Source: Caballeronia sp. NK8
GTDB lineage: Bacteria > Pseudomonadota > Gammaproteobacteria > Burkholderiales > Burkholderiaceae
Assembly: GCF_018408855.1 (NCBI RefSeq)
Contig: NZ_AP024323.1
Location: 1,240,001 to 1,304,000, forward strand
DNA: 64,000 nt
Reading direction: 5' to 3'
The notes beneath the pieces are model-generated. The model did no database searches and was not told the DNA's origin. It was given only the letters and a program-made list of their open reading frames with translations. The position numbers and the translations under genes are program-made. This document shows positions 7,679-39,153 of this stretch, piece by piece; the stretch's first letter is position 1; each line of letters opens with the position of its first letter.

Positions 7679-8103
7679 TTGGTGATCGAGACGTGCGTGC
7701 CTTCTCCTGGCGCCGAGCGGATATCGAACTCGTCGCACAGGCGTTTCGCGCCGCCGAGGCCGAGGCCCAGGCCGCTGCCCGACGTGAAGCCATCGGAGAG
7801 CGCGCGTTGAATGTCCGGAATACCGGGACCGTTGTCGACGAATTCGAGTCTGAGGCCGCGGCGGCCATTGCGCTCGACGAGATAGCAATGCACGTCGCCG
7901 CCGCCACCGTAGATGAGCGTATTGCGTGCCAGCTCGCTCGCGGCGGTCACGAACTTGGTCTGATCGATGAGCGACAGCCCCTGCGCGACGGCCTTCTCGC
8001 GCACGAACTGGCGCAACCGCACGATCTGCTCGTCGGAGCGGATCGGCAGCGTGTCGGGCGGCGACGAGGACGTCGGCGCGGCTGTGGAGTTGAGGATCAT
8101 CAT
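7663..8103 (-). CDS. rsbT: Anti-sigma-type serine/threonine kinase RsbT
   Basis: 146 residues, a single GHKL HATPase domain matching RsbT: SELARNTLIYGGGG (N box), DNGPGIPDI (G1) and SGSGLGLGLGGAKRL (G2). In the Bacillus stressosome RsbT phosphorylates RsbS and RsbR and, once released, activates a partner. Here it directly follows rsbS with a 20-base gap and overlaps the phosphatase gene. No RsbU or sigma-B gene is seen in the window, so the downstream partner is unknown; the two kinases that follow are candidates. The start could be either of the two adjacent ATGs. Confidence 0.92.
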   Translation of the reverse strand: MMILNSTAAPTSSSPPDTLPIRSDEQIVRLRQFVREKAVAQGLSLIDQTKFVTAASELARNTLIYGGGGDVHCYLVERNGRRGLRLEFVDNGPGIPDIQRALSDGFTSGSGLGLGLGGAKRLCDEFDIRSAPGEGTHVSITKWKPF

Positions 8104-8123
8104 GGCATCGTGTGCAGGCGGCC

Positions 8124-8483
8124 TCAGGCCATGCCGTTTTTCGCGAGAAGCGCCATGCCCTTCTCCACGTTGAGCGCCGTGCGCACGCCCGAGAGCGTGA
8201 GCCCGAGCTCGACCAGCGTGATCGCCACCGAGGGCTGCATGCCGACCACGACCGTTTCCGCATCGAGCACGCGCGCCATCGCCGCCGTGTTGCCGATCAT
8301 GCGTCCGATGAACGAATCCACCACGTCGAGCGAAGAGATGTCGATCAGCACGCCGCGCGCGTTGTCCTTTACGATGCGGCTCGTCAGATCGTCCTGCAGC
8401 GTGAGCGCGAGCCGGTCGTGCATGTCCACCTGAATGGTGACGAGCAGGAGCTTGCCCATCGTGAGAATCGGAATGCGTTCCAT
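8124..8483 (-). CDS. rsbS: Stressosome scaffold/antagonist RsbS (STAS)
   Basis: 119 residues, a lone STAS domain. The segment SSLDVVDSFIGRMIG carries the conserved serine that RsbT phosphorylates in the Bacillus protein, within the same DVVDSF context. STAS proteins of this type form the icosahedral stressosome core with RsbR and hold RsbT. It lies 43 bases after rsbR and 20 bases before rsbT on the same strand, the standard R-S-T order. Confidence 0.93.
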   Translation of the reverse strand: MERIPILTMGKLLLVTIQVDMHDRLALTLQDDLTSRIVKDNARGVLIDISSLDVVDSFIGRMIGNTAAMARVLDAETVVVGMQPSVAITLVELGLTLSGVRTALNVEKGMALLAKNGMA

Positions 8484-8526
8484 CGCTTGAGGCCCCGTTC
8501 AGTGCTTCGAGTGGCGCGATGCGCCG

Positions 8527-9444
8527 TCATTCCGCTTGCAGCGAATCGAATCCATCGCCCGGACGGCCGCCGCGCGGCGCGTCGTGCGCGAGCCCCGCCG
8601 ACACCGACTTGCCCGTGCGCTGCAGCGCGACGACGAACGCCGACGCGAGCGTCGCCTTGGTCGTCACGTTCGAGAGGTTCACGCCGAGATGCACGATGGT
8701 CTGCGCGATCTGCGGGCGAATGCCGCTGATGATGCAGTCCGCGCCCATCAGCCGCGCCGCCGCGACCGTCTTCAGCAAGTGTTGTGCGACGAGCGTATCG
8801 ACGGTCGGCACGCCGGTGATGTCGATGATCGCAATCGCCGCGCCCGTCTCGACGATCTTCTGCAGCAGGTTTTCCATCACGACCTGCGTGCGCGCGGAAT
8901 CGAGCGTGCCGATGAGCGGCAGCGCGAGCACGCCGTCCCACAACTGCACGACGGGCGTCGACAGTTCGAGGAGTTCCTGCTGCTGACGCACGATGACCTG
9001 TTCCCGGCTCGCCTGGAAGACTTCGGTCGTGAAGAGGCCGAGTTCGTCGAAGAGCGTGCTGATGGTCCAGGTGAGATCGGCGAGGGTCGCGGGATCGTCG
9101 GCGAGCGAGTCGCGCAGGCGCACGAAGAGCGGCTGCTTGAGCGAGAACACGAACATCGCCGTCTCGACCGGCGAGAAGCCCTGACGCGCGCGCTGGCCGG
9201 ACATGTCCGCGAGAAACGAGCGCACGTCCTGCCACGCGGGCAGTTTGAAATCGACGCGCTCGGACGTACTGAGCACCGTCACCAGAAGCGAGATGAATTG
9301 CGTGAACTGATTGCGCAATTCCGCCTCGCCGACGAGTCCACGCCGTGACGCGATGGCGTGCTGCTGCGTGAACCATTCCGCGAGCAACTCTTCCTGGTTG
9401 TTGTTGAACAACTGCGCAAGCCGCATTCCGCCGACCATTTCCAT
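8527..9444 (-). CDS. rsbR: Stressosome sensor RsbR
   Basis: 305 residues. An N-terminal globin-like RsbR sensor region (about 1-150, all helical; QEELLAEWFTQQ near the start) joins a C-terminal STAS domain (about 165-280). Both threonines phosphorylated by RsbT in the Bacillus protein are in conserved settings: DITGVPTVDTLVAQ and NVTTKATL. No obvious heme-binding pocket can be assigned by eye. The start ATG 9444 has AGGGA about 8 bases upstream; ATG 9426 is a possible alternative. It is the first gene of a six-gene minus-strand operon. Confidence 0.92.
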   Translation of the reverse strand: MEMVGGMRLAQLFNNNQEELLAEWFTQQHAIASRRGLVGEAELRNQFTQFISLLVTVLSTSERVDFKLPAWQDVRSFLADMSGQRARQGFSPVETAMFVFSLKQPLFVRLRDSLADDPATLADLTWTISTLFDELGLFTTEVFQASREQVIVRQQQELLELSTPVVQLWDGVLALPLIGTLDSARTQVVMENLLQKIVETGAAIAIIDITGVPTVDTLVAQHLLKTVAAARLMGADCIISGIRPQIAQTIVHLGVNLSNVTTKATLASAFVVALQRTGKSVSAGLAHDAPRGGRPGDGFDSLQAE

Positions 9445-9703
9445 GCCGCGATCCCTGTGCGAATGATGTTATTGGTTTGTTGCGTCGCCCGATGATCATC
9501 GACATCAAGCGCGACGCAAGGCGCTCGGAATGTAGCATGCCATCCCGAAATCTGACAGTCCGGAAAGCCTTATGGTGCAAGGGATTCGCGGATCATTTCG
9601 CCGCAGGGTTCGCGCGTCCGTGATGAATCGGCAATTGCTGCCGGTCGTTCGCGACGGGCTGAACAAAGACCGGTCAAATCTCCTGAGGAACATGCGCGAA
9701 CAT

Positions 9704-10051
9704 TCAGCGCGGCAGCATAAAGAGTTCGAGCGCCTGCAGGCTGATCGGTTTGAGAAGAAAGCCGTCGAAGCGGGTCTCGCCGCTCGTCGCGACGAAATCG
9801 GTGTGACCGGTCATCGCGATGATGCGCGCGCCGCTGTTCGGGCCCGCCGCGCGAATCGCGGTGCAGATTTCGCGGCCGTCGGAGTCGGGCAGGGAAATGT
9901 CGAGGAAGATGCTGTCGAAATGTTCGCGCGAAGCGAGCGCGAGGCAACTGGCGCCGTCGTGCGCCACGGCCGACGTGTGGCCCAGCCCGCTTGCGATGTC
10001 GACGAGGGTCTCGACGCAGGCGTGGTTGTCATCGACGAATAGCAGGTGCAT
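9704..10051 (-). CDS. Single-domain response regulator
   Basis: 115 residues, a receiver domain alone. The acidic pair D7/D8, phospho-acceptor D51 (FLDISLPDSDGR), T81 (AMTGHT) and switch lysine K101 (LLKPIS) are all present, so it should be phosphorylatable. There is no output domain; such proteins act as phosphate shuttles or sinks. It lies 260 bases upstream of the rsb operon on the same strand, so it may be a partner of the operon's hybrid kinases. That pairing is inferred from position only. Confidence 0.88.
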   Translation of the reverse strand: MHLLFVDDNHACVETLVDIASGLGHTSAVAHDGASCLALASREHFDSIFLDISLPDSDGREICTAIRAAGPNSGARIIAMTGHTDFVATSGETRFDGFLLKPISLQALELFMLPR

Positions 10052-10250
10052 CGTGGCTCGCTCCGGTTCGACGCGTCAGTCAGTGTAGTGCATCGCCGAA
10101 GGCGCTCATGCTTTCACTTCGTCAGCGGCGAGGCTTTGTCCGCTGGAAGCTGTATCGACATGCCATGCCATGTATAGCGGCGCGAATATTTTTTTGTGTA
10201 GCAGGCGGTGCAATACTCGGACGACTGTCTATCGAGCCGCCGGAGCGCAC

Positions 10251-11621
10251 ATGGCCCAAACGATCCATCCCGTCGACGAAGTGTTGCCCCTCGGTCAGAT
10301 GCTTGCGGTTGGCATACAGCACGTGCTCGTGATGTACGCGGGCGCGATCGCGGTGCCGCTCATCATCGGCGCGGCGTTGAAGCTGCCGAAGGAGCAGATC
10401 GCGTTTCTGATCAGCTCGGATCTTTTTGCGTGCGGGATCGTCACGCTGGTGCAGTGCATCGGCGTATGGAAGTTCGGCATACGGCTGCCGGTCATCATGG
10501 GCGTGAGCTTCGCGCCGGTCGGACCGATGGTCGCGATGGCTTCGTCCGGCGCGGGCCTTACGTCGATCTTCGGTGCAACCATTGCGGCGGGCGTGTTCGC
10601 CATACTGATCGCGCCGTTCTTCGGGCGGCTGATGCGTTTCTTTCCGCCGATCGTCACGGGCACGATCATTCTCACGATCGGCATGACGCTCTTTCCGGTG
10701 GCGATCAACTGGGCGGGCGGCGGGCGCGGCGCGGCGAATTTCGGCGAGCCGAAGAACCTGATGATCGCGGCCATCGTGCTGCTTGCGATTCTGCTCATCA
10801 ACAAATATCTGAAGGGCTTCATCGCGAACATTTCGGTGTTGCTGGGCATGGCGATCGGCTTTGCGATCGCGTTGCCGCTCGGCTTCGTCGATTTCTCGGG
10901 CATCGGTCAGGCCGCGTGGTTCGCGCCGGTGCGGCCGTTCGCGTTCGGCATGCCGACGTTCGATATCGCGGCGATCGCATCGCTGTGCCTCGTGATGGTC
11001 GTCATCATGGTGGAATCGCTCGGCATGTTTCTCGCGCTCGGCGACCTCGCGATGAGGCCGGTTTCCCGTATCGATGCGACGCGCGGGTTGCGTACCGATG
11101 GTCTCGGTACGGTGATCGGCGGCATCTTCAATACGTTTCCGCATTCTTCCTTTTCGCAGAATATCGGGCTGGTGGGGATTACCGGAGTGAAGAGCCGCTG
11201 GGTCGTTGCGGTGTCGGGGGTGATTTTGATTCTGCTCGGGCTGTTGCCGAAGCTTTCCAATCTGATTGCTTCGATACCGGTCGTCGTGCTCGGGGGCGCG
11301 GGGATCGCGATGTTCGGGATGGTCGCGGCGACCGGCGTCAAGATCCTGAGCAAGGTCGATTTCGATAGCAAGAACAACTTGCTTATTATCGCTATCAGTT
11401 TGGGGGTGGGAGTGATTCCGCTCGTTGCGCCCGCGTTTTTCGCGCATATGCCGGCGTGGGCGGGGCCGCTGACGCATAGCGGGATCACGCTTGCTGCTGT
11501 GTTTGCTATCTTGCTCAATGCGCTATTCAATCGCGGGCGGGATTCGGGGGACATTGAGATGGAGATCGCTGCGGAGATGCCGTTGAGCCTTCGGCAAGGG
11601 GATGTGGATGTCAGGGATTGA
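10251..11621 (+). CDS. NCS2 family purine/pyrimidine permease
   Basis: 456 residues with about 12-14 hydrophobic segments. The NCS2 signature QNIGLVGITGVKSR and the helix-8 motif ESLGMFLALGD identify it as a nucleobase-cation symporter of the xanthine/urate/uracil group. It would import a nucleobase across the inner membrane with protons. ATG 10251 was chosen over upstream in-frame codons because it leaves the usual short N-terminus (MAQTIHPVDEVLP). It stands alone, with a repeat element beginning 13 bases after its stop. Substrate specificity is not decidable by eye. Confidence 0.9.
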   Translation: MAQTIHPVDEVLPLGQMLAVGIQHVLVMYAGAIAVPLIIGAALKLPKEQIAFLISSDLFACGIVTLVQCIGVWKFGIRLPVIMGVSFAPVGPMVAMASSGAGLTSIFGATIAAGVFAILIAPFFGRLMRFFPPIVTGTIILTIGMTLFPVAINWAGGGRGAANFGEPKNLMIAAIVLLAILLINKYLKGFIANISVLLGMAIGFAIALPLGFVDFSGIGQAAWFAPVRPFAFGMPTFDIAAIASLCLVMVVIMVESLGMFLALGDLAMRPVSRIDATRGLRTDGLGTVIGGIFNTFPHSSFSQNIGLVGITGVKSRWVVAVSGVILILLGLLPKLSNLIASIPVVVLGGAGIAMFGMVAATGVKILSKVDFDSKNNLLIIAISLGVGVIPLVAPAFFAHMPAWAGPLTHSGITLAAVFAILLNALFNRGRDSGDIEMEIAAEMPLSLRQGDVDVRD

Positions 11622-11633
11622 ATTGTTGCTTTC

Positions 11634-11840
11634 GCCGGATCCCGTATTCGCGTCGGTCTATTAGCACTGCCCCTGTGCGGGGCGGCAGTCACTTTCTTTG
11701 CTGCTGCAAAGAAAGTAACCAAAGAAAGCAGCCCGACACGCCCGCGGTCACACGCAATTTGGGTGTTCTTCTCCTCGCTCGTGGCACTCAATAGCGAGTG
11801 CCCTCACAGGCCACATCGGGCTTGGACCGCGCACGGTCTG
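11634..11840 (+). repeat. Left arm of long inverted repeat (Burkholderiaceae repeat family)
   Basis: This 207-base arm begins GCCGGATCCCG and recurs in reverse complement at 12038-12243 with roughly nine bases in ten identical. It contains the small palindrome ACTTTCTTTGCTGCTGCAAA plus its mirrored partner, and the GGGGCGGCAGT block. Its spurious translation contains FFAAAKKVTAAPHR. It is an intergenic repeat, not a gene. Confidence 0.85.
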
Positions 11841-12037: not shown

Positions 12038-12243
12038 CAGACCGTGCGCGGTCCACGCCCGATGTGGCCTACGAGGGCACTCGCTACAGAGGCCACGAAC
12101 AACGAGAAGAACACTCAAATTGCGTGTGACCGCGGGCGTGTCGAGCTGCTTTCTTTGGTTACTTTCTTTGCAGCAGCAAAGAAAGTAACTGCCGCCCCGC
12201 ACAGGGGCAACGCTAATAAACCGACACGCTATCGGGATCCGGC
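12038..12243 (-). repeat. Right arm of long inverted repeat
   Basis: Reverse-complement partner of 11634-11840, ending GGATCCGGC. Together the arms could fold into a cruciform or, if transcribed, a long hairpin. The outermost 85 or so bases also recur at 37875-37958. Confidence 0.85.
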
Positions 12244-12311
12244 GAAAAACCACAAACCCAATCAAACCCACTACCATAGAGAGAACCCAAAATGCCGCCC
12301 CCGAAGAAAAA

Positions 12312-28471: not shown

Positions 28472-28844
28472 GATAGTGCTCCTGAGGGTTTCACATAACC
28501 ACTTCAATCGGCCTCATTGCACTGCCTGCCAAGCAACCGACCTTCTGAAATGTGCACGCAGTCTACGTGCGTGAACCGGCGTTGAAATCCCCTCAAAAGC
28601 AAGGATAGGAATGGATGGCTACGCGCGCTGTGTAGGGAGCGCTTTGCGCATTACTCCTTGTCCACGACAGCGCCGCGCGCGGCTCGCCGGCGCCTGTTGA
28701 AGAGGCACGGGTGCGATGGGTCGTCAACGGGTAAACTGGCGAAATCAGACTTCCTCCGCTGCGTTGACCATCAGAACCATGACCAGATCGAGAGCAGCCG
28801 TGCCCCAGCTCGACCACGGACCCGACACGCCAGGCGAGCCCACG

Positions 28845-30728
28845 ATGAGTCACGCGCAATATCACGCGCTCGTCGATGCGATCGAAGACTGCGCGATCTT
28901 CATGCTCGACCTGAACGGCCGCATCACGAGCTGGAACACGGGCGCGCGCAGGATCAAGGGCTACGAGGCGCACGAGATCATCGGTCAGCATCTGTCGCGC
29001 TTCTATCCGGCGGAGGCGGTCGAGCGCCGCTGGCCCGAGTACGAGCTGAAGCAGGCATATGCGACCGGGCGCTTCGAGGATGAAGGCTGGCGCGTGCGCA
29101 AGGACGGCACGCTGTTCTGGGCGAACGTCGTCATCACGGCGGCGCGCGATACGAAGGGCGAGATCATCGGCTACGCGAAATGCACGCGCGACCTCACCGC
29201 GAAGCGCGCCGAAGAGGAAAAGCTGCGTCTGTCGGAAGAACGCTTTCGTCTGCTCGTGGAAAGCGTGAGCGACTACGCGATTTTCATGCTCGACCCGGGC
29301 GGCCATATCGCGAGCTGGAATACGGGCGCGATGCGGATCAAGGGTTATCAGCCGTCAGAGATCATGGGCAAGCATTTCTCGACGTTCTACTGTCCCGAGG
29401 ATCTGGCCGCCAACCTGCCCGAGATCGAACTGCAGACCGCGATCCGCACGGGCCGCGTGGAGAATGAAGGCTGGCGCGTGCGCAAGGACGGTTCGCTATT
29501 CTGGGCGAACGTCGTCATCACCGCGGTGTACGACGAGCATCGCGTGCTGCGCGGCTTCGCGAAGGTCACGCGTGACATGAGCGAGCGCAAGCGCCTCGAG
29601 CAGCTCGAAGTATCGTCGCGGCGCATCAGCGAGTTTCTCGCGACACTCGCGCACGAGTTGCGCAATCCGCTCGCGCCGGTGCGCAACGCGATCGGCGTGA
29701 TGCAGATGGAAAAGGGCATGCCGCAGCGGGTCAACGCGTGCCGCGACATCATCGACAGACAGACCTCGCATCTCGGCCGGCTCGTCGACGATCTGCTCGA
29801 CATGGGCCGCATCACGACGGGCAAGATCGATCTGCGCATGGCGCGCGTCGATGTGAGCGATATCGTCGCGCGCAGCATCGAGCTGGTGCATCCGTTCATC
29901 GACGAACGCACGCAGCGCGTCGTGACGAAGCTGGCGCGCGATCCCGTCCATGTGATGGGCGACCCCACGCGGCTCGTGCAGGTCGTGCAGAACCTGTTGA
30001 ACAATGCGTCGAAGTTCTCGCCGCGCGGGAGCACGATCACGGTCGAAGTCGAGCCCGAGACGAGCGCGCTGCTGCTCAAGGTATCCGATACCGGGCGTGG
30101 CATTTCGCAGAAGGGGCTCACCTCCATCTTCGATCTGTTCGTGCAGGAGGACCACTATCTCAATCCTGGCGAGGCGGGGCTCGGCATCGGGCTTACGTTG
30201 TGCAGGTCGATCGTCGAGATGCACGGGGGGTCGATTTCCGCCGCGAGCGACGGGCCGAATCAGGGCAGCACGTTCACGGTGCGATTGCCGTATGCATCGG
30301 TGGATGACGCGCCGCGTCCGCATCGCGTGCTCGCGCAAAGCGCCGCGCGGGAGGTCGGCGATGGGTTGCGCGTCGTCGTGATCGACGATAACCAGGATTC
30401 GGCGGACAGTCTCGCCATGCTGTTGCAGATGAAAGGGCATGACGTGCGTATCGCGTATCACGGCAAGGAAGGGCTCGATGTGGTTCGGCATTTTCCGCCG
30501 GAGCTGATTTTGCTCGATCTCGCTTTGCCGGATATGGATGGGTATGCGGTGCTGCGGGCGCTGCGCTCGAAGCGGCTCATCGGGGGGGCGATGGTCGTCG
30601 CGATGACGGGGTTTGGGCAGGACAGCGACAAGGAGCGCTCCGCGCAGGCGGGGTTCGATGCACATCTTGTCAAGCCGGTGGATTTCGAGGTGCTGGATCG
30701 GTTGTTGGTTCGGGTGGCGGGGCGGTGA
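28845..30728 (+). CDS. Hybrid histidine kinase: PAS-PAS-HisKA-HATPase-REC
   Basis: 627 residues, soluble. Two PAS domains in tandem (about 10-125 and 135-250) are close copies: each has IFMLD, SWNTGA and RIKGY in the same places and ends GWRVRKDG, LFWANVVITA. The H box TLAHELRNPLAPV (near 275), HATPase (NLLNNASKFS, DTGRGIS, GLGIGLTLCRS) and a C-terminal receiver (VVIDDNQDSAD, LLDLALPDMDG, LVKPVDF) follow. ATG 28845 has a weak GGCGAG site; ATG 28779 would add 22 residues. The gene is a close relative in design of the hybrid kinase at 2977-4896. Its partner is unknown. Confidence 0.9.
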   Translation: MSHAQYHALVDAIEDCAIFMLDLNGRITSWNTGARRIKGYEAHEIIGQHLSRFYPAEAVERRWPEYELKQAYATGRFEDEGWRVRKDGTLFWANVVITAARDTKGEIIGYAKCTRDLTAKRAEEEKLRLSEERFRLLVESVSDYAIFMLDPGGHIASWNTGAMRIKGYQPSEIMGKHFSTFYCPEDLAANLPEIELQTAIRTGRVENEGWRVRKDGSLFWANVVITAVYDEHRVLRGFAKVTRDMSERKRLEQLEVSSRRISEFLATLAHELRNPLAPVRNAIGVMQMEKGMPQRVNACRDIIDRQTSHLGRLVDDLLDMGRITTGKIDLRMARVDVSDIVARSIELVHPFIDERTQRVVTKLARDPVHVMGDPTRLVQVVQNLLNNASKFSPRGSTITVEVEPETSALLLKVSDTGRGISQKGLTSIFDLFVQEDHYLNPGEAGLGIGLTLCRSIVEMHGGSISAASDGPNQGSTFTVRLPYASVDDAPRPHRVLAQSAAREVGDGLRVVVIDDNQDSADSLAMLLQMKGHDVRIAYHGKEGLDVVRHFPPELILLDLALPDMDGYAVLRALRSKRLIGGAMVVAMTGFGQDSDKERSAQAGFDAHLVKPVDFEVLDRLLVRVAGR

Positions 30729-30753
30729 TTTTTTTGCCGGAGCTTGGGTTGTC

Positions 30754-30776
30754 GCCGGATCCCGTGTTGGTGTCGG
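30754..30776 (+). repeat. Fragment of the repeat-arm end
   Basis: GCCGGATCCCG and the following TGTCGG match the outer end of the repeat arms at 11634 and 12243, in the orientation of the left arm. Only about 23 bases are alike, so this is a suggestive remnant. Confidence 0.4.
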
Positions 30777-30882
30777 GCGCGTCAAATCGGTCGACGCGAC
30801 AAACATCACCATCGAATACTGCTGCGCCTGCTGGCTCGCAGGTCTCGTTCGGCATTCAGGCACGCGTCAACGGAACGCTGCA

Positions 30883-31063
30883 ATGTTTCGTCCTCTCGTT
30901 ACGTTCGCGCTGGCGTTGCTCGCGTTGAGCACTAACCTTCGTTTATATCGAAGGCGATCACAACAGCGTCCGCGATACGGGCGGGCATGGCGGCGTCGTG
31001 CAATTGCCAGACAGGACAGACCGCGCAAACTCGGAACCGCATGCATTTCGACCACTACGCTGA
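30883..31063 (+). pseudogene. Possible frameshifted small exported protein
   Basis: ATG 30883 begins a signal-peptide-like MFRPLVTFALALLALST. From 30941 the +1 frame reads VYIEGDHNSVRDTGGHGGVV and continues to a stop at 31061-31063, with composition like a real protein. A single-base indel near 30930-30940 would join the two. No homologue is recalled; this may be chance. Confidence 0.25.
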
Positions 31064-31086
31064 ACGAGTCCAGAGGGCATGATAAC

Positions 31087-31107
31087 AAGCCCGCGCTCGG
31101 CGGGCTT
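31087..31107 (-). terminator. Terminator-like hairpin after the repeat-protein gene
   Basis: AAGCCCGC-GCTCG-GCGGGCTT, an 8-bp perfect stem with a 5-base loop, 18 bases past the stop codon of the minus-strand repeat protein. The TT on the far side is short, so strength is moderate. Confidence 0.7.
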
Positions 31108-31125
31108 GAGTGCGAGGTTCGCTCG

Positions 31126-33642
31126 TTACGCGCTGGCAGCCAACAGCATCTGCGTGTCATTCTGCGCTGGCGCTACGAACGCCGACGTCGCGGATGAGTC
31201 TGCTCCGTACACAGCCATAGCGGCCACGAGACTATCCACTTGCTGCGTGGTGCTGTCCGCAGGACCGATATCGCGGCCACTCATCATAGTCATAGGTCCG
31301 ACATCGACGTGCCCTTCACGATCGTCGCCACCGCGACCCGTACCAGCGCCTTCGCCGCCGTGGCCTCCCGCTCCCTTGTCGGAACCATTCATGTAAACGT
31401 GGGCCTTCGTTGAACCTACCGAATTGCCATTGCCGAAGACTTGAATCGTCATGTTGTAGTTAGCATCCGACGAGTAAATCGTGTTGTTGTCTCCGTACAC
31501 ACAGAAATTTCCGGTTGCGCCGCCGAGCGTGATGACCGCGCCGGACACATACATGTCGCCGCCGCCAGTGCAAGCAAGCGAAGACCCAACACCAGCCTTG
31601 ATCGTGTTGCTGTTCCCATTCGCCGATACACTGCTGTGAGCGCCAGCGGTAATGGTATTGCCCGATCCAGATATGTTAGCCCCTGCGTTATCCGTCATGC
31701 TAACCGTCGTGTTGCTGCCTTTGATTACCGACCCTTTAACATTTGCAACAGCGCTTACGATTGACCCTGCCGTCGTAAGCGTTACCGTCTGATTGTTGCT
31801 GGTCATCCAGACTGTATTCGCCCCGTTTACAGTGGCGCTGGTTCCTGCACCGCCTAGAGCAACGGTATTGCCGACAGAATTGACGGTCATGTTTTGGCCG
31901 AATACGCCGGCATATTCACCACTGTACGAGATCATGGTGATTCGCCCGTCAACTCCTGACACGTCTGCGCTCGATCCTGTACCCTTTAAATTAACCGTAT
32001 TGCCATTTGACTGCACACCGTTACCTTTGCCGGTCAAGTTCGCGTTTGCGCCGCTGTAGGCCCCCAGCGTGACGAAATTGTTGGAACCATTGACGTCACC
32101 CCAGAACCCGGTTCCGCCATTGATCGTCGAATTGTTGGTATTGATCGTTGTGCCGGTCACGGTTGGCGACGTGTTGATCGTGGAGCCCGGCGAGGCGAAG
32201 GTGATCGTCTGATTGTTGCTGGTCATCCAGACCGTATTTGACCCGTTGATCGAAGCGCTCGTTCCTTCGCCTCCGAGCGCGATAACGTTGCCAGCCGAAT
32301 TGACCTTGAAATTTGCTCCGAACAGTCCTACCGATGCGCCACTAGAAGCTCCTAGTGTAAGTGTATTGTCTGAACCACTGATGCTACCTCCGAACCCGGT
32401 TCCACCATTGATCGTCGAATTGTTGGTGTAGATTGCTGTGCCGGTCACGTTCGGCGACGCGTTGATCGTGGAGCCCGGTGAGGTGTAGTCGAGCGTCTGA
32501 TTGTTGCTGGTCATCCAGACTGTATTCGCCCCGTTTATGGCGGCGCTCGTACCTACGCCCCCTAGAGCGACAACATTACCAACGGAATTGACGTGAAAGT
32601 TTGCTCCGAACAGTCCTGTGTACGCACCACTGTTCGCGATCATGTCCACGACATTGTCCGATCCAACGACGTTTGCGCTTGACGCGTTCAACCCGAAACT
32701 GATACCGCCGCCGTTCGCCGCTACGTAATTGTCTTTACCAATCAACGCCACCCGGCTTCCGCTGTAAGACGCCATCGAGATACTGTTACGAGAACCATAA
32801 ATACCTGCCGATGATCCATTACCGAGATTGAAATCGTTGTCATCTCCATGGAATTCGCCGCGTGAGTTCGTGGTCAAGTTGATATGGAAGCTCGATACGT
32901 CCGAGACGACATCCTGACCGTAGAAAGTTTCGGATCCGATGCCTCCGTTAAACGCCAGCAGCACGCTGCTACTCCGAGAGCCGATCTCGGAATATTCGAA
33001 CGCGTTACCGGCGAGGGAGTTGGTCGTGAGAGCGTCGCCAGCCTGACCGGCCATGACGAGAATCGACTGACCGTTTTGGTTGATGCTTCCAAAATCCAGG
33101 ATGAAGTCGTTCCAGTCTTTCGATCGCATGAGCTGGTTATCAAGCTCTTGGAAGTAGTCCGCGATTCCGTAGATGGTCGACATGCCCCAACCTACAGCCG
33201 TAGCGACTGCTCCGATCGCGCCCGCTGCGGTACCCATTGATGCCGCGGCAGCGACGAGAGCTCCTTCCCCCGCTAGTGATGCCATCGCTCCCACTCCAGT
33301 GGCAACCACTTGACCTAACCCGGCCGCGTCGCCGACGATCGCGACAAAAGCCGCATCGCGCGCGCGCGTGTCGCTCGCTGTCGACGCGATATGGAAGTTA
33401 TCCAAGTCATTGCTCAAACTAGCAGCGCTAGCAGTTAGGCCGGCGAGGTTGGAGAAGCCCTTTGCGAAAGGCGATGAAGCAAGTGCAGTGGTCGCCGCTA
33501 CGAAGTTTGCGCCAGCTCTTGCAACGTCTTGCTGAGTTGCGTTGCCCATCCGATTATCGGCGAGGGTACTTGCGAACGAACTCCATGCGCCCATCGCAAT
33601 CGCTATATCAGATGAAGTTTGGATCGTTGTAACACCCGACAT
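31126..33642 (-). CDS. Large repetitive protein, probable type I secretion substrate
   Basis: 838 residues, no signal peptide. Residues about 1-200 are Ala/Ser-rich and helical with a hydrophobic stretch (GALVAAAASMGTAAGAIGAV). Residues about 225-760 are Asn/Gly/Ser/Thr-rich beta-helix-like repeats; NTVWMTSNNQT occurs three times and VNSVGN/VNSAGN marks each unit. Underlying DNA repeats have a period near 290 bases. A Gly/Asp/His-rich linker (about 750-775) precedes an Ala-rich C-terminus. No RTX nonapeptides are visible. Being last in an operon that begins with HlyB/TolC remnants, it looks like that exporter's cargo. GC is visibly below the flanks. AAAGGGA precedes the ATG. Confidence 0.75.
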   Translation of the reverse strand: MSGVTTIQTSSDIAIAMGAWSSFASTLADNRMGNATQQDVARAGANFVAATTALASSPFAKGFSNLAGLTASAASLSNDLDNFHIASTASDTRARDAAFVAIVGDAAGLGQVVATGVGAMASLAGEGALVAAAASMGTAAGAIGAVATAVGWGMSTIYGIADYFQELDNQLMRSKDWNDFILDFGSINQNGQSILVMAGQAGDALTTNSLAGNAFEYSEIGSRSSSVLLAFNGGIGSETFYGQDVVSDVSSFHINLTTNSRGEFHGDDNDFNLGNGSSAGIYGSRNSISMASYSGSRVALIGKDNYVAANGGGISFGLNASSANVVGSDNVVDMIANSGAYTGLFGANFHVNSVGNVVALGGVGTSAAINGANTVWMTSNNQTLDYTSPGSTINASPNVTGTAIYTNNSTINGGTGFGGSISGSDNTLTLGASSGASVGLFGANFKVNSAGNVIALGGEGTSASINGSNTVWMTSNNQTITFASPGSTINTSPTVTGTTINTNNSTINGGTGFWGDVNGSNNFVTLGAYSGANANLTGKGNGVQSNGNTVNLKGTGSSADVSGVDGRITMISYSGEYAGVFGQNMTVNSVGNTVALGGAGTSATVNGANTVWMTSNNQTVTLTTAGSIVSAVANVKGSVIKGSNTTVSMTDNAGANISGSGNTITAGAHSSVSANGNSNTIKAGVGSSLACTGGGDMYVSGAVITLGGATGNFCVYGDNNTIYSSDANYNMTIQVFGNGNSVGSTKAHVYMNGSDKGAGGHGGEGAGTGRGGDDREGHVDVGPMTMMSGRDIGPADSTTQQVDSLVAAMAVYGADSSATSAFVAPAQNDTQMLLAASA
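31780..32690 (-). repeat. Intragenic direct repeats, period about 290 bases
   Basis: Three copies of a block of about 115 bases (near 31783, 32202 and 32492) carry GATTGTTGCTGGTCATCCAG; the latter two belong to full units of about 290 bases that also share AACCCGGTTCC near 32105 and 32395. The copies keep the reading frame and code for the repeats of the 838-residue protein. Confidence 0.8.
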
Positions 33643-33662
33643 TGTTTTTCCCTTTACTTTAA

Positions 33663-34607
33663 TTAGAAACCTGTCGCGAGGCGAAATCCGATAGCTGAAT
33701 TCCTGATGCCTCTACTGCCTCCACCCCAGCTAGCGGCCCGAACCCCTTGAGGAATCGTTGCCCAACTGGCACCTCGTATGGAATGCGAGCGGCATTGGTC
33801 TTCGGGGACGCGCGGGAGCGCGGCTGTTAGTGCATTACTATTCTCGGAGCATCCAGACAGCCATTGGCTTGCGTCTCCCAACATGTCGTACAGGCCCCAA
33901 GGATTCGGCCTAAACGAGCCAACCGGAGAGGTCCATAGATAGTTATCGTTGCAGGGAGCAACCGGAGAATCCGGATCGAGCGCTTTAGCGGTCTCATCAC
34001 GCGTATTTTCGTACAGACACTGCTCTTTTCTGCCACTTCCCCAATACCTAGACGTTGTAGTGCCCGCGCGAGCCGCGTATTCCCATTCTTCGTTAGTCGG
34101 TAGTCGGTAACTGTGCTTAATTTTTCCGGAAAGCTTTGTATTCAGCCAAGCGATATATTTCTGAGTGTCATCCCATGACACGCATACGACTGGATCATCT
34201 TCGGTTTGGGGGAATCCCGGGTGTTTCCAATCTGCATCTCTGACAAACGCCCAATCGGTACGATTGAAAGTCCTACAGCCTTTGCCTTCAAATCCTGTCT
34301 CGTTTGCAAAAACCGCAAATTGCTTTCGCGTCACGTGATATCGGCCGATCGCGAATGATCTAACTTTCACAGAACGTGGGGGACCCATGACCGTGAGGTC
34401 GAACTGATATTCCTTTTCATCACCCTCAAAATCCTCTCGATTTGCACCCATCATGTACTCGCCCGCCGGCAACACGACCATCTCCGAGCAATAGTCGCAG
34501 TCCTTGAACGTTGTTGCGGGCGGCACAGTCTTCGCATAAAGCGGAACCGCCGTAAGTGATGCGAACCCCAGACCGATTAGTAACCGCATTCGATAACGCT
34601 TAAACAT
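33663..34607 (-). CDS. Exported SUMF1/FGE-domain protein, copy B
   Basis: 314 residues. A Sec signal peptide (MFKRYRMRLLIGLGFASLTAVPLYA) is followed by a SUMF1 domain: MVVLPAGEYMMGAN, a VTRKQFAVFANETGF strand, DPVVCVSWDDTQKYIAWLN, YRLPTNEEWEYAARAG and the C-terminal SIRGASW with IGFRLATGF. True formylglycine-generating enzymes carry two cysteines just after RGGS; here that segment reads ATIPQGVRAAS, so catalysis is unlikely and a binding or structural role is more probable. ATG 34607 is fixed by AAAGGAGCAC just upstream. It lies 20 bases before the repeat protein and is a tandem paralogue of copy A. Confidence 0.85.
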   Translation of the reverse strand: MFKRYRMRLLIGLGFASLTAVPLYAKTVPPATTFKDCDYCSEMVVLPAGEYMMGANREDFEGDEKEYQFDLTVMGPPRSVKVRSFAIGRYHVTRKQFAVFANETGFEGKGCRTFNRTDWAFVRDADWKHPGFPQTEDDPVVCVSWDDTQKYIAWLNTKLSGKIKHSYRLPTNEEWEYAARAGTTTSRYWGSGRKEQCLYENTRDETAKALDPDSPVAPCNDNYLWTSPVGSFRPNPWGLYDMLGDASQWLSGCSENSNALTAALPRVPEDQCRSHSIRGASWATIPQGVRAASWGGGSRGIRNSAIGFRLATGF

Positions 34608-34706
34608 CAGTGCTCCTTTGGTTGTAGAAGTTTTTGTCGTTAGTGTTAATTCACGCTGACCCATTCGAGCCGGCCCAACTTTGCGGCAAGATCAATCCGC
34701 GCATCG
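34450..34706 (-). repeat. Direct repeat, copy 2 (SUMF1 5' end plus TolC tail)
   Basis: 257 bases nearly identical to 35575-35831, exactly 1125 bases away. It covers the SUMF1 signal peptide region, its leader and the last codons of the TolC-like gene. Only about two differences were noted by eye. Confidence 0.9.
34646..34706 (-). pseudogene. Remnant of TolC-like 3' end
   Basis: This segment encodes ARIDLAAKLGRLEWVSVN and a stop, the same C-terminus as the HlyB-TolC chimera, but nothing of the gene remains upstream. It is the scar left by tandem duplication of the SUMF1 gene with the end of its upstream neighbour. Confidence 0.85.
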
Positions 34707-34787
34707 AGTGCCAATGATAAAAATTTAATAAAATTTAGCGCCTTTTCAACTTGAGAGCGCTTGTATCCACCGCTGTTTCTATGATTA

Positions 34788-35732
34788 TTAGCGTTCTGCA
34801 GCGAGACGAAATCCTTGCGTAGAATCTCGAGTATTTGAATAATTCCCCCCCCAGCTTGCAGCGCGAATGCCGGTCGGAATCGAGGCCCAGCTTCCGCCCC
34901 TCTGCTTGTGTCCGCGACATCTAACCTCTGGAACAGGAGACAAGTTAGCGGTAAGTCTTCCTCCGTTTTCGGAACACTCCAGCATCCACTGCGTCGCATT
35001 GCCCAGCATGTCGTACAAACTCCATTGATTAGGCTGAAAGGAACCCACCGGCGAGGTCCAAAGAAAATGATCATCGCAGGGTGCAACAGGGACGTCTGGT
35101 CCCAGGGCCTTGGCCGTTTCGTCGCGTGTGTTTTCGTAGCGGCATTGCTCTCGTCTGCTAGTTCCCCAGTACATCGGCGTTGTCGTTCCGGCTCGCGCGG
35201 CATACTCCCATTCTTCTTCGGTTGGCAGCCTGTAGCGATGTGTGGTCTTGCCTGCAAGCTTGCTGTTAAGCCATTCGATGTACTGCTTGACGTCGGTCCA
35301 TGAAACACAGACGACCGGATCGTCGTCGGTCTGCGGAAAGCCAGGGTTCTGCCAGTCAGCATCCGCAACGAGATCCCAGTCGACTCGTTTGAAGGTCATA
35401 CAACCCTTTCCTTTAAAGCCTGTCTCCCTCGCAAAGACGCCAAACTGTTTGCGGGTAACATGAAAGCGCCCGATGGCAAATGAATTGACATGCACGCTAT
35501 GGGGTTCTCCCTGTACAAGACGTTCAAGTTGATACGCTCTGGAATCGTCCCCAAAGTCCTCCTTCGTGGCTCCCATCATGTACTCGCCCGCCGGCAACAC
35601 GACCATCTCCGAGCAATAGTCGCAGTCCTTGAACGTTGTTGCGGGCGGCACAGTCTTCGCATAAACCGGAACCGCCGTAAGTGATGCGAACCCCAGACCG
35701 ATTAGTAACCGCATTCGATAACGCTTAAACAT
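34788..35732 (-). CDS. Exported SUMF1/FGE-domain protein, copy A
   Basis: 314 residues, the same length as copy B. The first 56 or so residues (signal peptide to EYMMGA) are nearly identical to copy B; the rest is similar but diverged. Domain marks are VTRKQFGVFARETGF, DPVVCVSWTDVKQYIEWLN, YRLPTEEEWEYAARAG and RGGSWASIPTGIRAASW. The FGE active-site cysteines after RGGS are absent, as in copy B. ATG 35732 has AAAGGAGCAC upstream. It follows the chimera by 38 bases. The very similar 5' ends imply a recent duplication or gene conversion. Confidence 0.85.
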   Translation of the reverse strand: MFKRYRMRLLIGLGFASLTAVPVYAKTVPPATTFKDCDYCSEMVVLPAGEYMMGATKEDFGDDSRAYQLERLVQGEPHSVHVNSFAIGRFHVTRKQFGVFARETGFKGKGCMTFKRVDWDLVADADWQNPGFPQTDDDPVVCVSWTDVKQYIEWLNSKLAGKTTHRYRLPTEEEWEYAARAGTTTPMYWGTSRREQCRYENTRDETAKALGPDVPVAPCDDHFLWTSPVGSFQPNQWSLYDMLGNATQWMLECSENGGRLTANLSPVPEVRCRGHKQRGGSWASIPTGIRAASWGGNYSNTRDSTQGFRLAAER

Positions 35733-35831
35733 CAGTGCTCCTTTGGTTGTAGAAGTTTTTGTCGTTAGTGTTAATTCACGCTGACCCATTCGAGCCGGCC
35801 CAACTTTGTGGCAAGATCAATCCGCGCATCG
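35575..35831 (-). repeat. Direct repeat, copy 1 (SUMF1 5' end plus TolC tail)
   Basis: Partner of 34450-34706. This copy is in its original setting, running from the SUMF1 coding start into the uninterrupted TolC-like coding end. Confidence 0.9.
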
Positions 35832-37336
35832 TCCCATTCCGCCGACGTCTGAATGCGCCGTTGCTTCGCATTGGCCAACGCGGTCTGCGTGTTGAGCAGT
35901 TCGACAATGTTGCCGACTCCAGCGTCATATCGACGTTGCGCAGCAACCCACGAACGCTCAGCGATCGCCAGTAAGCTCGCGCTGGTCTCGGCATTCTTCG
36001 TCGCGCCGTTCAATGTCTGGTAGCTGGTCCAAACCTCAAGCGCAACCTGCCGCCGAGTCCCGTCCAGCGAAACAAGTTGCCGCTCGGCTTGTGCAGTGGC
36101 CTGCTTGATCTGATATTGCCGACCGAATCCCTCAAAAAGAGGAATGCTTATTTGCACGCCGATAAAGGCGTCGTTCCCGGTTGCCGGATACGTCGGCATA
36201 CTGAGTCCCAGACGCTGCGGTTGATCGTTCCGGCTGTATTTGCCGACTAGGCTGATGCTCGGCAGGCCCTGTGCACGCGTCTGCGTGACCTTCGCGACGG
36301 CGGCATCGTACTGTGCCTGTGCTGCGCGCACCGAAGGATGGCGCTCCTTGGCGCTCGCAATCATCTCGTCAATGGATTCGGCGATGTCTCGGACAGTCGG
36401 CGCATCGGCTGAAGAGAGCGGCACGTCAACGGGGAGCGTGGGATCGAATCCCATGTCCGATGCAAGCGTGCCGAGCGCCTTTTGCGCGTCGGTATATGCC
36501 TTATTGAGGGCAAACACCGCTTGTTCGTACTGTGTTTGCGCTTGCAAGGCATCCGTGACGGGTGCGACGCCCTTATCGCCCACTCGACGCGCGCCGAAGT
36601 AACCGAGCGGCAAGGCAACCAGATGCCGGAACAGGCGGGCTCCGAGTTCGACGTCGATCCGGTTTGTGGTGTGAGCAAAAACATAGTTGCGCAGACCTGT
36701 CAGCAAAACTTCGAAAATGGCGCAGATGAATAAGGCCATGCAGACCACATTGAGGGTGCTGAAGGTGCGATTCACCAACACCTTATCCATCACGACCTGG
36801 AACATGAGCGGCGTAACCAGCCCGAAGACTTGCAAGGCGAGCGATACGCCGAGCACTTCCAGCAGCAGCTTTCGATAACGGACGATCGCGGGGATGAACC
36901 ATGAGAAATCAAAGCGCGCCAGTTCGCCCGCGAGGGAGGCACGAGATGCGAACAGAATCATTCGCCCATCGCTGAACGCACTCACATCCTCAAGCGGTTT
37001 AATGATTGGCGTGGCAGCTCCGGGTCCCAACAACAACGCCGTTTTTCCATCGGATTTGGCAAGGATGAAATGCCTTCCGTCACGGCCCAATATCAGCGCG
37101 GGGAGAGGGGTCGTCGCAAGCGCTTCCGCTCGAAGCATGACAGTCCGTGCTTTGAGCCCCAGTGAGCGCGCTGCGCGTAGTAAATCTTTTTCCGTGATCT
37201 GCCCGTCATGCCCGACGCAATGGTGCTTTAATTGCGCCGCGTCTGCTGAAATTCCGTGAAAGCGCGCAATCGTAACCAGTGCTGCTATCCCGTAGTCTTC
37301 AACTGGATTTGATTTATCATTTTTTTGATTCGACAT
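35771..37336 (-). CDS. Chimera: N-terminal HlyB-type ABC exporter fused to C-terminal TolC-type protein
   Basis: 521 residues in one frame. Residues 1-254 match the start of an HlyB-type exporter: a C39-like domain with Tyr where the peptidase Cys would be (DYGIAALVTIARFHG), then membrane segments (LLLEVLGVSLALQVFGLV, FQVVMDKVLVNRTFSTL) up to LPLGYFGARRVGD. Without transition, residues 255-521 match the second half of TolC/CyaE-like outer-membrane factors (KGVAPVTDALQAQTQYEQA to the C-terminus). The rest of the permease, the ATPase domain, the HlyD adaptor and the TolC signal peptide are missing. An internal deletion that happened to keep frame is the simplest origin; it cannot be a working exporter. 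The junction is near 36577. Confidence 0.85.
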   Translation of the reverse strand: MSNQKNDKSNPVEDYGIAALVTIARFHGISADAAQLKHHCVGHDGQITEKDLLRAARSLGLKARTVMLRAEALATTPLPALILGRDGRHFILAKSDGKTALLLGPGAATPIIKPLEDVSAFSDGRMILFASRASLAGELARFDFSWFIPAIVRYRKLLLEVLGVSLALQVFGLVTPLMFQVVMDKVLVNRTFSTLNVVCMALFICAIFEVLLTGLRNYVFAHTTNRIDVELGARLFRHLVALPLGYFGARRVGDKGVAPVTDALQAQTQYEQAVFALNKAYTDAQKALGTLASDMGFDPTLPVDVPLSSADAPTVRDIAESIDEMIASAKERHPSVRAAQAQYDAAVAKVTQTRAQGLPSISLVGKYSRNDQPQRLGLSMPTYPATGNDAFIGVQISIPLFEGFGRQYQIKQATAQAERQLVSLDGTRRQVALEVWTSYQTLNGATKNAETSASLLAIAERSWVAAQRRYDAGVGNIVELLNTQTALANAKQRRIQTSAEWDDARIDLATKLGRLEWVSVN

Positions 37337-37530
37337 CGGTCTTTTTGTATAGTCTTTTCGCGAAAATTCAGCAACGTATTGCGTTACTTCTTAGCTTGAT
37401 TTCGGTGGCAAAATTTGCTTTATGATTATTTCAATTTGCAAAAATCAAAAACGCTAGCATGTTCCGATGATTAATATCAGTCAATAAATCGGAAAAATCC
37501 CAAAATCTTTAAAGGCTTAAGCAGCGCATG
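37337..37530 (-). promoter_or_regulatory. AT-rich region upstream of the secretion relic
   Basis: About 190 bases markedly richer in A+T than anything in the flanks, with runs such as TTTTTGATTTTTGCAAATTG on the minus strand. It must contain the operon promoter. A TTGACT at 37479-37484 is a possible -35 element, without a well-spaced -10. AT-rich leaders like this are usual targets of H-NS-type silencers. Confidence 0.4.
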
Positions 37531-37986
37531 CGTGGAACTCCGGCGCGTGGTGTCTCCCTGCATTTCGACAGCGATGGCACGGCAAGGCGCACGCGGGTGG
37601 CCCCGTTTCTTTGGACGGTTCAGTGGTAACCCGAGGGTAAGTCAAGAGTTGAACGCGCGGAGAGAAGCGTTCATATACGCCGCGTTCAACGAGCACGCCG
37701 CGAAACCTTTACCCGTGCGAGTGGTCCTAAAGCGGTTGCGAACGTGCGACAGTCCCGCGACCAGTGTGTCAAAGTCTGTCGACGTGGCAGATTTTTAGCG
37801 GGGATATTGAGGAGGTAGACGCGCTGAATATTCGGCGAAATCTATATCAATCGATGATTTGCGATTTATAAACAAATTTCTTTGCAGCAGCAAAGAAATT
37901 GACTGCCGCCCCGCACAGGGGCGACGCTAATAGACCGGCGCGAATACAGGATCCGACGACAACTCAAGCGCAAGCAAAAAGTCCCC
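37531..37986. other. Gene-free right edge of the island
   Basis: This stretch returns to higher GC. An open frame from 37528 encodes about 33 residues (MRGTPARGVSLHF...) and then stops; no family is recognised. The interval ends with a partial repeat copy at 37875-37958. Confidence 0.5.
37875..37958 (-). repeat. Partial copy of the Burkholderiaceae repeat
   Basis: TTTCTTTGCAGCAGCAAAGA, ACTGCCGCCCCGCACAGGGG and GGATCCG occur in the same order as in the right arm 12038-12243. This is the outer 85 bases or so of the element in right-arm orientation, directly 3' of the FUSC gene. Confidence 0.85.
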
Positions 37987-39117
37987 TCACTCCCTAACCA
38001 CCCGCAACGGAAAAACGATCCGCGAAGCCACCAACCCCAACGCCCCACCAAGCAACGTCTCCCAGGCCCGCGCGGTCAGCAGCCCGACCGAATGCACCCC
38101 ACTCGCGGCCAGCGTCACGACCAGCACGAACGCGAACGCCCCGCAGGCGATGTCATACCGCTCCGGCAACGCCATCGCATAAGCGATCATCGCCAATGCG
38201 GACAATGTCCACACGACAACCGGCCAATGCTCCGCGAGCGGCAGACACACGAGCCCGAGCGGCACCCCGACAAGCGTCCCATAGATACGTCGCCGCACGC
38301 GCTCCGCCGTACCCACCGCCGACGTCGCCACGACATACACACACGCCGTGATCGCCCATGCCGATTCCACGAGCCCGATCGCACGATTCAGCAGCACCAC
38401 CACGAGCGCGCCGCACGTCGCCTGCAACCCCATCGCGAACGCGGGCGATATCGCGTGACGTCCATAAGCGGGCTCGGACGCCAGCGCCGGCAGCACGGCC
38501 GGATGCTCCGCCGGCCCGCTCAGCACCCGCGGCACGATCGCCGCCAGCATGCCGATCAGCAGCGCGAACAGAATCGCCCTTGAATCGCCGGGCGCGAGAT
38601 TCATCCCATAGGCGAGTAACTGTCCGATATAAAGCTGCGAGCCGATGCCAGCGCCAGTCACCCCGAAGCGCTTCAGATAGCCCGCGAAGAACGCGCCCGT
38701 GACGAGCACGAGCTCGGAGCCGCCGCGCCCGTATTCACGCAGCATCGGCCCGAACAACGCGAACGTGAGCGCGCCGAACGCAGCGGCGATGCACAGCACG
38801 GCGAGATCGCGGCTCGATTCGAAACGCGTCGTGCGCGCTTCGGACACGCTCGCCCACAGCGCGAATCCGCCCGCCAGCGCGCCGACGGACACGCCGGCCG
38901 GCACGCTCTGCGTCACGTCCTGCAACGCGCCGAGCGCCGCCGCGAGACCGTATGCGGTGACGAGCCGCAAACCCTTGATGCGCCGATGCGTACCCGGATC
39001 GATGCGATCCAGCCACGCGAGCGCCGCCCGCCCGCGACGCGCGGCCGACTGCACAAGCGTCAACGCCGATTCCGCGAGACGCGTTTTCGCGTCGCCGATG
39101 TGCTGCTCGTCGTCCAT
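37987..39117 (-). CDS. FUSC family inner-membrane protein
   Basis: 376 residues with about 10 hydrophobic segments in two sets of five, the pattern of FUSC/aromatic-acid-exporter-like (AaeB/YccS) proteins. RRIYGTLVGVPLGLV in the second half is the typical FUSC motif. The protein would be an inner-membrane exporter component; the adaptor and outer-membrane partners are not nearby. ATG 39117 is favoured over an upstream start at 39147 because it gives a polar 40-residue lead as in the family. It is followed by the LysR gene upstream on the same strand, 36 bases apart. Confidence 0.8.
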   Translation of the reverse strand: MDDEQHIGDAKTRLAESALTLVQSAARRGRAALAWLDRIDPGTHRRIKGLRLVTAYGLAAALGALQDVTQSVPAGVSVGALAGGFALWASVSEARTTRFESSRDLAVLCIAAAFGALTFALFGPMLREYGRGGSELVLVTGAFFAGYLKRFGVTGAGIGSQLYIGQLLAYGMNLAPGDSRAILFALLIGMLAAIVPRVLSGPAEHPAVLPALASEPAYGRHAISPAFAMGLQATCGALVVVLLNRAIGLVESAWAITACVYVVATSAVGTAERVRRRIYGTLVGVPLGLVCLPLAEHWPVVVWTLSALAMIAYAMALPERYDIACGAFAFVLVVTLAASGVHSVGLLTARAWETLLGGALGLVASRIVFPLRVVRE

Positions 39118-39153
39118 GGAGATCCACCGAGGGAGAACGCGCTCCAACGCATT

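What the first reader, a model, noticed from the sequence alone, without database searches (positions are those of the whole stretch)
35771..37336. In-frame HlyB-TolC chimera: a collapsed type I secretion operon
One uninterrupted frame joins the first 254 residues of an HlyB-type exporter (C39-like domain and part of the membrane domain, ending GYFGARRVGD) to the C-terminal 267 residues of a TolC-type protein (from KGVAPVTD). The rest of hlyB, all of hlyD and the 5' part of tolC are gone. Either this is a deletion relic still being translated, or the short fusion has gained another role. Preserved frame and codons suggest that the event is recent.
Basis: partly seen in the sequence, partly recalled or inferred. 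Interest (0 to 1): 0.75.

Follow-up and report, generated by a model that had tools for sequence, protein, structure and literature searches.

The report
Deletion-made HlyB-TolC secretion gene relic
A stretch of a bacterial protein-export operon was deleted so that the front of one gene runs in frame into the back of another; this looks like an ordinary deletion relic, in a genome that keeps a second, complete copy of such an export system.

Summary
One open frame on the minus strand (37336..35771, 521 aa) joins residues 1-254 of an HlyB-type exporter to the last 267 residues of a TolC-type channel; no hlyD match is in the window. The uncollapsed architecture exists: Caballeronia ptereochthonis (L162/L163) has hlyB-hlyD-tolC followed by the same FGE-type gene, with a further FGE copy and the putative substrate gene on another contig. 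About 3.4 kb is missing relative to it. The window's genome also keeps an intact paralogous hlyB-hlyD-tolC operon (75%/70% identity). The module is a lower-GC insert of about 7.25 kb, absent in 13 of 13 relatives whose fetched stretch holds both flanking genes. In 58 genus and 398 sampled family genomes only the window's own gave a full-length match. One other HlyB-TolC chimera was found (Burkholderia sp. BCC0419), with other breakpoints, which favours chance deletions over a selected architecture. Lacking the ATPase domain, most of the membrane domain and the first half of TolC, the product should be neither exporter nor channel. Best reading: a fairly recent in-frame deletion relic with open downstream genes. 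A new role is not excluded but unsupported. Expression and assembly error could not be tested; no structure model was obtained.

The parts
35771..37336 (-). HlyB-TolC chimeric ORF, 521 aa
36575..37336 (-). HlyB part: C39-like domain plus first part of the membrane domain (residues 1-254)
   Evidence: 75.6% identity to the HlyB of contig C4 and to that of C. ptereochthonis
35771..36574 (-). TolC part: last 267 residues (from K255)
   Evidence: 70-71% identity to intact TolC
36572..36579 (-). Deletion junction; the parent genes share a short tract around the Asp codon (GACA in the C. ptereochthonis genes)
   Evidence: by comparing the C4 and L162 genes
34788..35732 (-). FGE/SUMF1-type gene, copy 1; likely start ATG at 35732 after AAAGGAG (the listed ORF begins at 35789)
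   Evidence: the start is read from the sequence
34646..34706 (-). Duplicated 3' stub of tolC in front of the second FGE copy
   Evidence: repeat D1, 288 nt, 95%, spacing 1125
33663..34664 (-). FGE/SUMF1-type gene, copy 2 (as listed ORF)
31126..33642 (-). Putative type I secretion substrate, 838 aa, repeat-rich
   Evidence: its role as substrate is inferred
30734..37983 (.). Insert carrying the module (GC 54.6% against 63.4% for the window), between a sensor kinase gene and an FUSC gene

Best explanation
It is a relic of a type I secretion operon, without its original function. An hlyB-hlyD-tolC-FGE-FGE-substrate module entered this site in the window's lineage. A deletion of about 3.4 kb, between a short shared tract in the first cytosolic loop of HlyB and the H3/H4 turn of TolC, removed the rest of hlyB, all of hlyD and the 5' part of tolC, and happened to keep the frame. 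If translated, the product would be a cytosolic C39-like domain with two membrane helices and a TolC fragment left in the cytosol: neither exporter nor channel. The downstream genes stay open, and their putative substrate could still leave through the intact paralogous system on contig C4. Shown: architecture, intact relative, paralogue, insert, no other copy in the genomes searched. Inferred: a single deletion event, the topology and lack of function of the product, and export in trans.
For: Uncollapsed relative with the same FGE gene directly after tolC (L162), and tolC stub, FGE and substrate gene on a second contig (L163). Intact paralogue around C4:1577764-1582710, 75%/70% identity. A single match over 1-521 occurs in 1 of 58 genus genomes and 1 of 398 family genomes, the window's own both times; 0 of 717 plasmid records with a match cover 80% of the query at one place; no ORF of the 85 loci examined matches two of HlyB, HlyD and TolC. 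A second, differently cut HlyB-TolC chimera, P0003. Other damaged operons: TolC-substrate chimera in L166, tolC fragments in L165 and L186, split hlyB in L185 and L064, split tolC in L040. Short shared tract at the junction. The chimera scores far below NCBI's cut-offs for both parents.
Against: In the broad comparison the HlyB half looks unspoilt: 0 of 37 invariant sites changed among 74 intact homologues. Both breaks seem to fall at turns of the parent structures, which could spare folding. Neither is strong: in the closer set of 14 the fusion has the most changes (7 of 123 invariant sites), and the chance of no stop codon without selection is 0.23-0.62 at 1-3% divergence, indels ignored. 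Split genes in relatives may be draft errors. No reads were available.
Confidence: 0.84

Rival explanations
1. The chimera has a role: its C39-like domain on a membrane anchor binds or chaperones the downstream substrate and hands it to the intact C4 exporter.
For: The C39-like domain and the first part of the membrane domain are kept, with 0 of 37 broadly invariant positions changed. In HlyB this domain tethers its cargo (PMC8277102, passages). The downstream ORFs are open and an intact exporter exists.
Against: Only the window's genome has it among those searched. The other known chimera is cut elsewhere. Against 14 closer homologues the HlyB half has 7 of 123 invariant sites changed, the most of all, though it is also the most diverged; the TolC half has 3 of 29 changed, more than any of 44 intact proteins. 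Such a role has no need of the TolC fragment.
Confidence: 0.05
2. The protein is useless, but the in-frame deletion was kept because it is non-polar: it avoids a premature stop and so keeps the downstream FGE and substrate genes expressed. (A refinement of the best explanation, not exclusive with it.)
For: Frame kept and downstream ORFs open; two other chimeras in such operons are also in frame (P0003; L166).
Against: A random deletion keeps frame one time in three, and chimeras are noticed because they are in frame, so the sample is biased. Transcription was not tested. Truncated or frame-broken relics exist too (L165, L186, L185, L064, L040).
Confidence: 0.15
3. An assembly error joined hlyB to tolC.
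For: No reads could be examined; the protein collection shows the locus on one contig only (P0002).
Against: Seven contigs for 9.2 Mb. The shared tract at the junction is only a few bases. Both parts differ by 25-30% from the C4 paralogue, so it is not a mix with that copy.
Confidence: 0.05

Closest known systems
HlyB-type type I secretion ATPase (TIGR01846; E. coli HlyB, PDB 7sgr/8dck)
   Same: C39-like domain with Tyr in place of the catalytic Cys, and the start of the membrane domain, to about HlyB residue 250
   Different: Everything after that is missing, including the rest of the membrane domain and the ATPase domain
TolC-type outer membrane channel (TIGR01844; PDB 1ek9)
   Same: Second part of the protomer, from about residue 146
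   Different: The first part, with the signal peptide that TolC proteins carry (recalled), is replaced by HlyB
P0003, 852-aa chimera of Burkholderia sp. BCC0419
   Same: In-frame HlyB-TolC joining without HlyD between the parts
   Different: HlyB kept to about residue 509 of the chimera and TolC from profile position 89: other breakpoints, hence probably an independent event
hlyB-hlyD-tolC-FGE operon of Caballeronia ptereochthonis (L162/L163)
   Same: Same gene order and downstream genes; 71-76% protein identity in the HlyB, TolC and first FGE parts
   Different: Transport genes whole; the module is split over two contigs; the substrate is only about 40% identical overall

Membership tests
HlyB family (TIGR01846) | Score above NCBI cut-off 725.55 | tested here: not met
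   253.3 bits, positions 1-238 of 694
HlyB family (TIGR01846) | ABC ATPase domain (PF00005) | tested here: not met
   no match at E<=1e-3 in the Pfam scan
HlyB family (TIGR01846) | C39-like domain with Tyr instead of the catalytic Cys | tested here: met
   DYG aligned to DYG of HlyB; meaning of Y9 from passages of PMC8277102
TolC family (TIGR01844) | Score above NCBI cut-off 225.15 | tested here: not met
   112.3 bits, positions 149-401 of 414
TolC family (TIGR01844) | Two OEP repeats (recalled as the usual make-up) | tested here: not met
   one OEP stretch, 323-509
TolC family (TIGR01844) | Sec signal peptide at the N-terminus | tested here: inconclusive
   the N-terminus is HlyB; no signal-peptide program was run
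Type I secretion system | Adaptor HlyD in the operon | tested here: not met
   no HlyD match in the window at E<=1e-3
Conserved fusion protein family | Same architecture and breakpoint in several species | tested here: not met
   limits of each search are given in the text
Pseudogene / relic | No expression or function | not testable with these tools
   no transcript or protein data

The most novel reading that the evidence does not exclude
The short chimera is a retained membrane-anchored cargo-binding protein: its C39-like domain captures the substrate encoded downstream and feeds it to the paralogous exporter on contig C4, so that an operon collapse turned an exporter into an accessory of its own paralogue.
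Probability: 0.05. Interest if true: 0.65.

Novelty: new member of a known kind. Interest (0 to 1): 0.27.

Why it matters
It is a clear example of how a secretion operon can decay on an insert while its putative cargo genes stay open, with an uncollapsed relative and a paralogue at hand for comparison. With two other in-frame chimeras seen in related operons, it suggests that internal deletions of such operons recur. As a new protein function it has little support.

Tried and rejected
Loci L085 and L091 first looked like full-length matches (residues 11-516 and 1-515); ORF listing shows tolC just upstream of an intact hlyB, so no fusion. G347 and G176 had frames of 847 and 850 aa at the HlyB match; the ORFs there are intact HlyB with separate TolC. 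Search for more chimeras with P0003 as query: among the 120 best listed of 7908, only P0003 itself carries both parts by its domain list; weaker chimeras could lie below. dN/dS was not attempted, because the nearest intact genes are only about 72% identical in DNA; invariant-site counts and Tajima counts were used instead.

in full: 79 intact HlyB and 56 intact TolC sequences were found. After leaving out L037 (same locus as L162), sequences under an identity limit, and near-identical rows, 74 and 44 were used. Broad set: HlyB half 0 of 37 invariant and 2 of 95 near-invariant sites changed (ordinary); TolC half 3 of 29 invariant (at most 2 in any intact protein) and 7 of 76 near-invariant (three intact proteins have more). 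Close set: HlyB half 7 of 123 invariant and 14 of 168 near-invariant, the most of 15 sequences; TolC half 14 of 120, the most of 10. The fusion is also the most diverged sequence of the close set, so this is weak evidence of relaxed constraint. Tajima counts against C. ptereochthonis: the fusion has more unique changes with all 7 outgroups in both halves; chi2 exceeds 3.84 in 0 of 7 (HlyB half) and 2 of 7 (TolC half); the outgroups are not independent.

Mobile origin: the best plasmid match covers 18% of the insert at about 72% identity and is an ordinary T1SS operon. Structure prediction was asked for four times and never ran.

Literature: two searches (5 papers, 6 papers; listings with titles and abstract starts seen) showed no paper evidently on such chimeras; that is no proof that none is in print. 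Of PMC8277102 I saw passages only.

Full report
What is there. The frame at 35771-37336 is open on the minus strand for 521 codons. Its first 254 residues are HlyB (C39-like domain and the start of the ABC membrane domain) and its last 267 are TolC. Residue 254 aligns with about residue 250 of E. coli HlyB, before F264 and T266, which a review places in TM3 (PMC8277102, passages). By the recalled topology of such exporters this is the first cytosolic loop, after two membrane helices, so whatever follows should lie in the cytosol. The TolC part begins at about residue 146 of TolC. Gate residue D153 lies in helix H4 by the same review; if the alignment has no gap there, which I did not see, the fusion's TD at 261-262 corresponds to T152-D153. 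Both breaks would then lie at turns; this is inference, since no model could be run. HlyD has no match in the window.

Where it comes from. Handle G025 is C. ptereochthonis, recognised by the contig lengths 170386 and 164335. There hlyB, hlyD and tolC are intact and an FGE-type gene follows directly until the contig ends (L162). The second contig ends with part of an FGE gene, then a tolC 3' stub, an FGE copy and the substrate gene (L163). The window has the same module minus about 3.4 kb: the matches end at L162 position 7247 and resume at 10659. Around the Asp codon the parent genes share a short tract, GACA in the C. ptereochthonis genes; this fits, but does not prove, a microhomology deletion. 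The window's genome also has a complete paralogous operon on contig C4 with its own repeat-rich neighbour of 858 aa.

The insert. The sensor kinase gene (28716-30728) and the FUSC gene (37987-39147) are neighbours in relatives. A FUSC match at E<=1e-80 was found in 41 of 58 genus genomes, the window's own included. I fetched the site in 16 of the other 40. In 13 of the 16 both genes are on the stretch, and none of these 13 shows a match to the module; nor do the other three stretches, which lack the kinase match. In 12 of the 13 the gap between the coding ends is 10-673 bp; in G023, the closest by FUSC (flanks 94-96% identical in DNA), it is 28 bp. In G017 it is 3.2 kb and holds other ORFs. 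The insert has 54.6% GC against 63.4% for the window. The simplest reading is that the module arrived after the split from G023; the deletion may have come before or after that.

How common. With the fusion as query, one match spanning 1-521 was found in 1 of 58 genus genomes (11 had any match at E<=1e-60) and in 1 of 398 family genomes (85 had any match at E<=1e-55; only 3 candidates per genome were scored), both times the window's own. Of 717 plasmid records with a match, none covers 80% of the query at one place. In the protein collection (5.8 billion sequences, of which the 7995 candidates sharing most words were scored) the two best hits were the window's own protein with a later start (P0002) and one other chimera, P0003 from Burkholderia sp. 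BCC0419, with HlyB to about its residue 509 and TolC from profile position 89. Another kind of in-frame joining, a TolC N-terminus to a substrate-like C-terminus, is in G037 (L166, 570 aa). Truncated or frame-broken genes are in L040, L064, L165, L185 and L186; some may be draft errors. Different breakpoints fit chance deletions, not a selected architecture.

Is it decaying? In the broad comparison the HlyB half has 0 of 37 invariant positions changed (74 intact homologues) and 2 of 95 near-invariant ones, which is ordinary. The TolC half has 3 of 29 (at most 2 in any of 44 intact homologues) and 7 of 76, which three intact proteins exceed. In the closer set the fusion has the most changes in both halves (HlyB 7 of 123, 14 intact; TolC 14 of 120, 9 intact), but it is also the most diverged member. 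Tajima counts against C. ptereochthonis give more unique changes to the fusion with all 7 outgroups in both halves, above chi2 3.84 in 0 of 7 and 2 of 7 (all). Without selection the chance of no stop codon by substitution is 0.62, 0.38 and 0.23 at 1, 2 and 3% divergence, indels ignored, so the open frame is no evidence of use. Together: a fairly recent loss with at most slight decay.

What the neighbours may do. The last 58 residues of the 838-aa protein match stretches beside T1SS genes in L163 (its relative), L055 and L057, and more weakly in L050, L067, L044, L036 and L061; and also L120, whose surroundings I did not examine. I read this as a C-terminal export signal; that is an inference. 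With its first 260 residues as query, the only database hits at E<=1e-10 were the window's own protein and one from C. ptereochthonis (7996 candidates scored); weaker matches occur in G021 and G035. With its own exporter broken, the C4 system is the likeliest route out; this was not tested.

Verdict. It is a well-explained deletion relic of modest interest; the fusion-with-a-role reading is possible but has no positive support.

Noticed in passing
34419-34706 and 35544-35831: Tandem duplication (period 1125) of the tolC 3' end plus the FGE gene; over the first 300 aligned bases the copies are 90-99% identical, further on mostly 57-70%, as if the front part were kept alike by gene conversion. 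C. ptereochthonis also has a tolC stub before an FGE copy.
   Followed up: partly
L166 5538-7250 (minus): In-frame chimera of a TolC N-terminus (residues 1-123) with a repeat-rich substrate-like part, next to intact hlyB and hlyD.
   Followed up: partly
L161 about 7280-10500: A different insertion of about 3.2 kb at the same intergenic site in relative G017, so the site may be an insertion hot spot.
   Followed up: partly
37877-37978 and 30742-30776: Stretches near the two ends of the insert match the same intergenic repeat of L156 in opposite orientation; further copies of the first lie at 11632-11714 and 12163-12266 and in relatives such as L159 and L164.
   Followed up: no
31126-33642: 838-aa repeat-rich protein whose N-terminal region has one strong database relative besides itself.
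   Followed up: partly
P0234: A 1190-aa HlyB-type protein with extra domains, perhaps an HlyB-HlyD fusion (the meaning of the extra domains is a guess).
   Followed up: no
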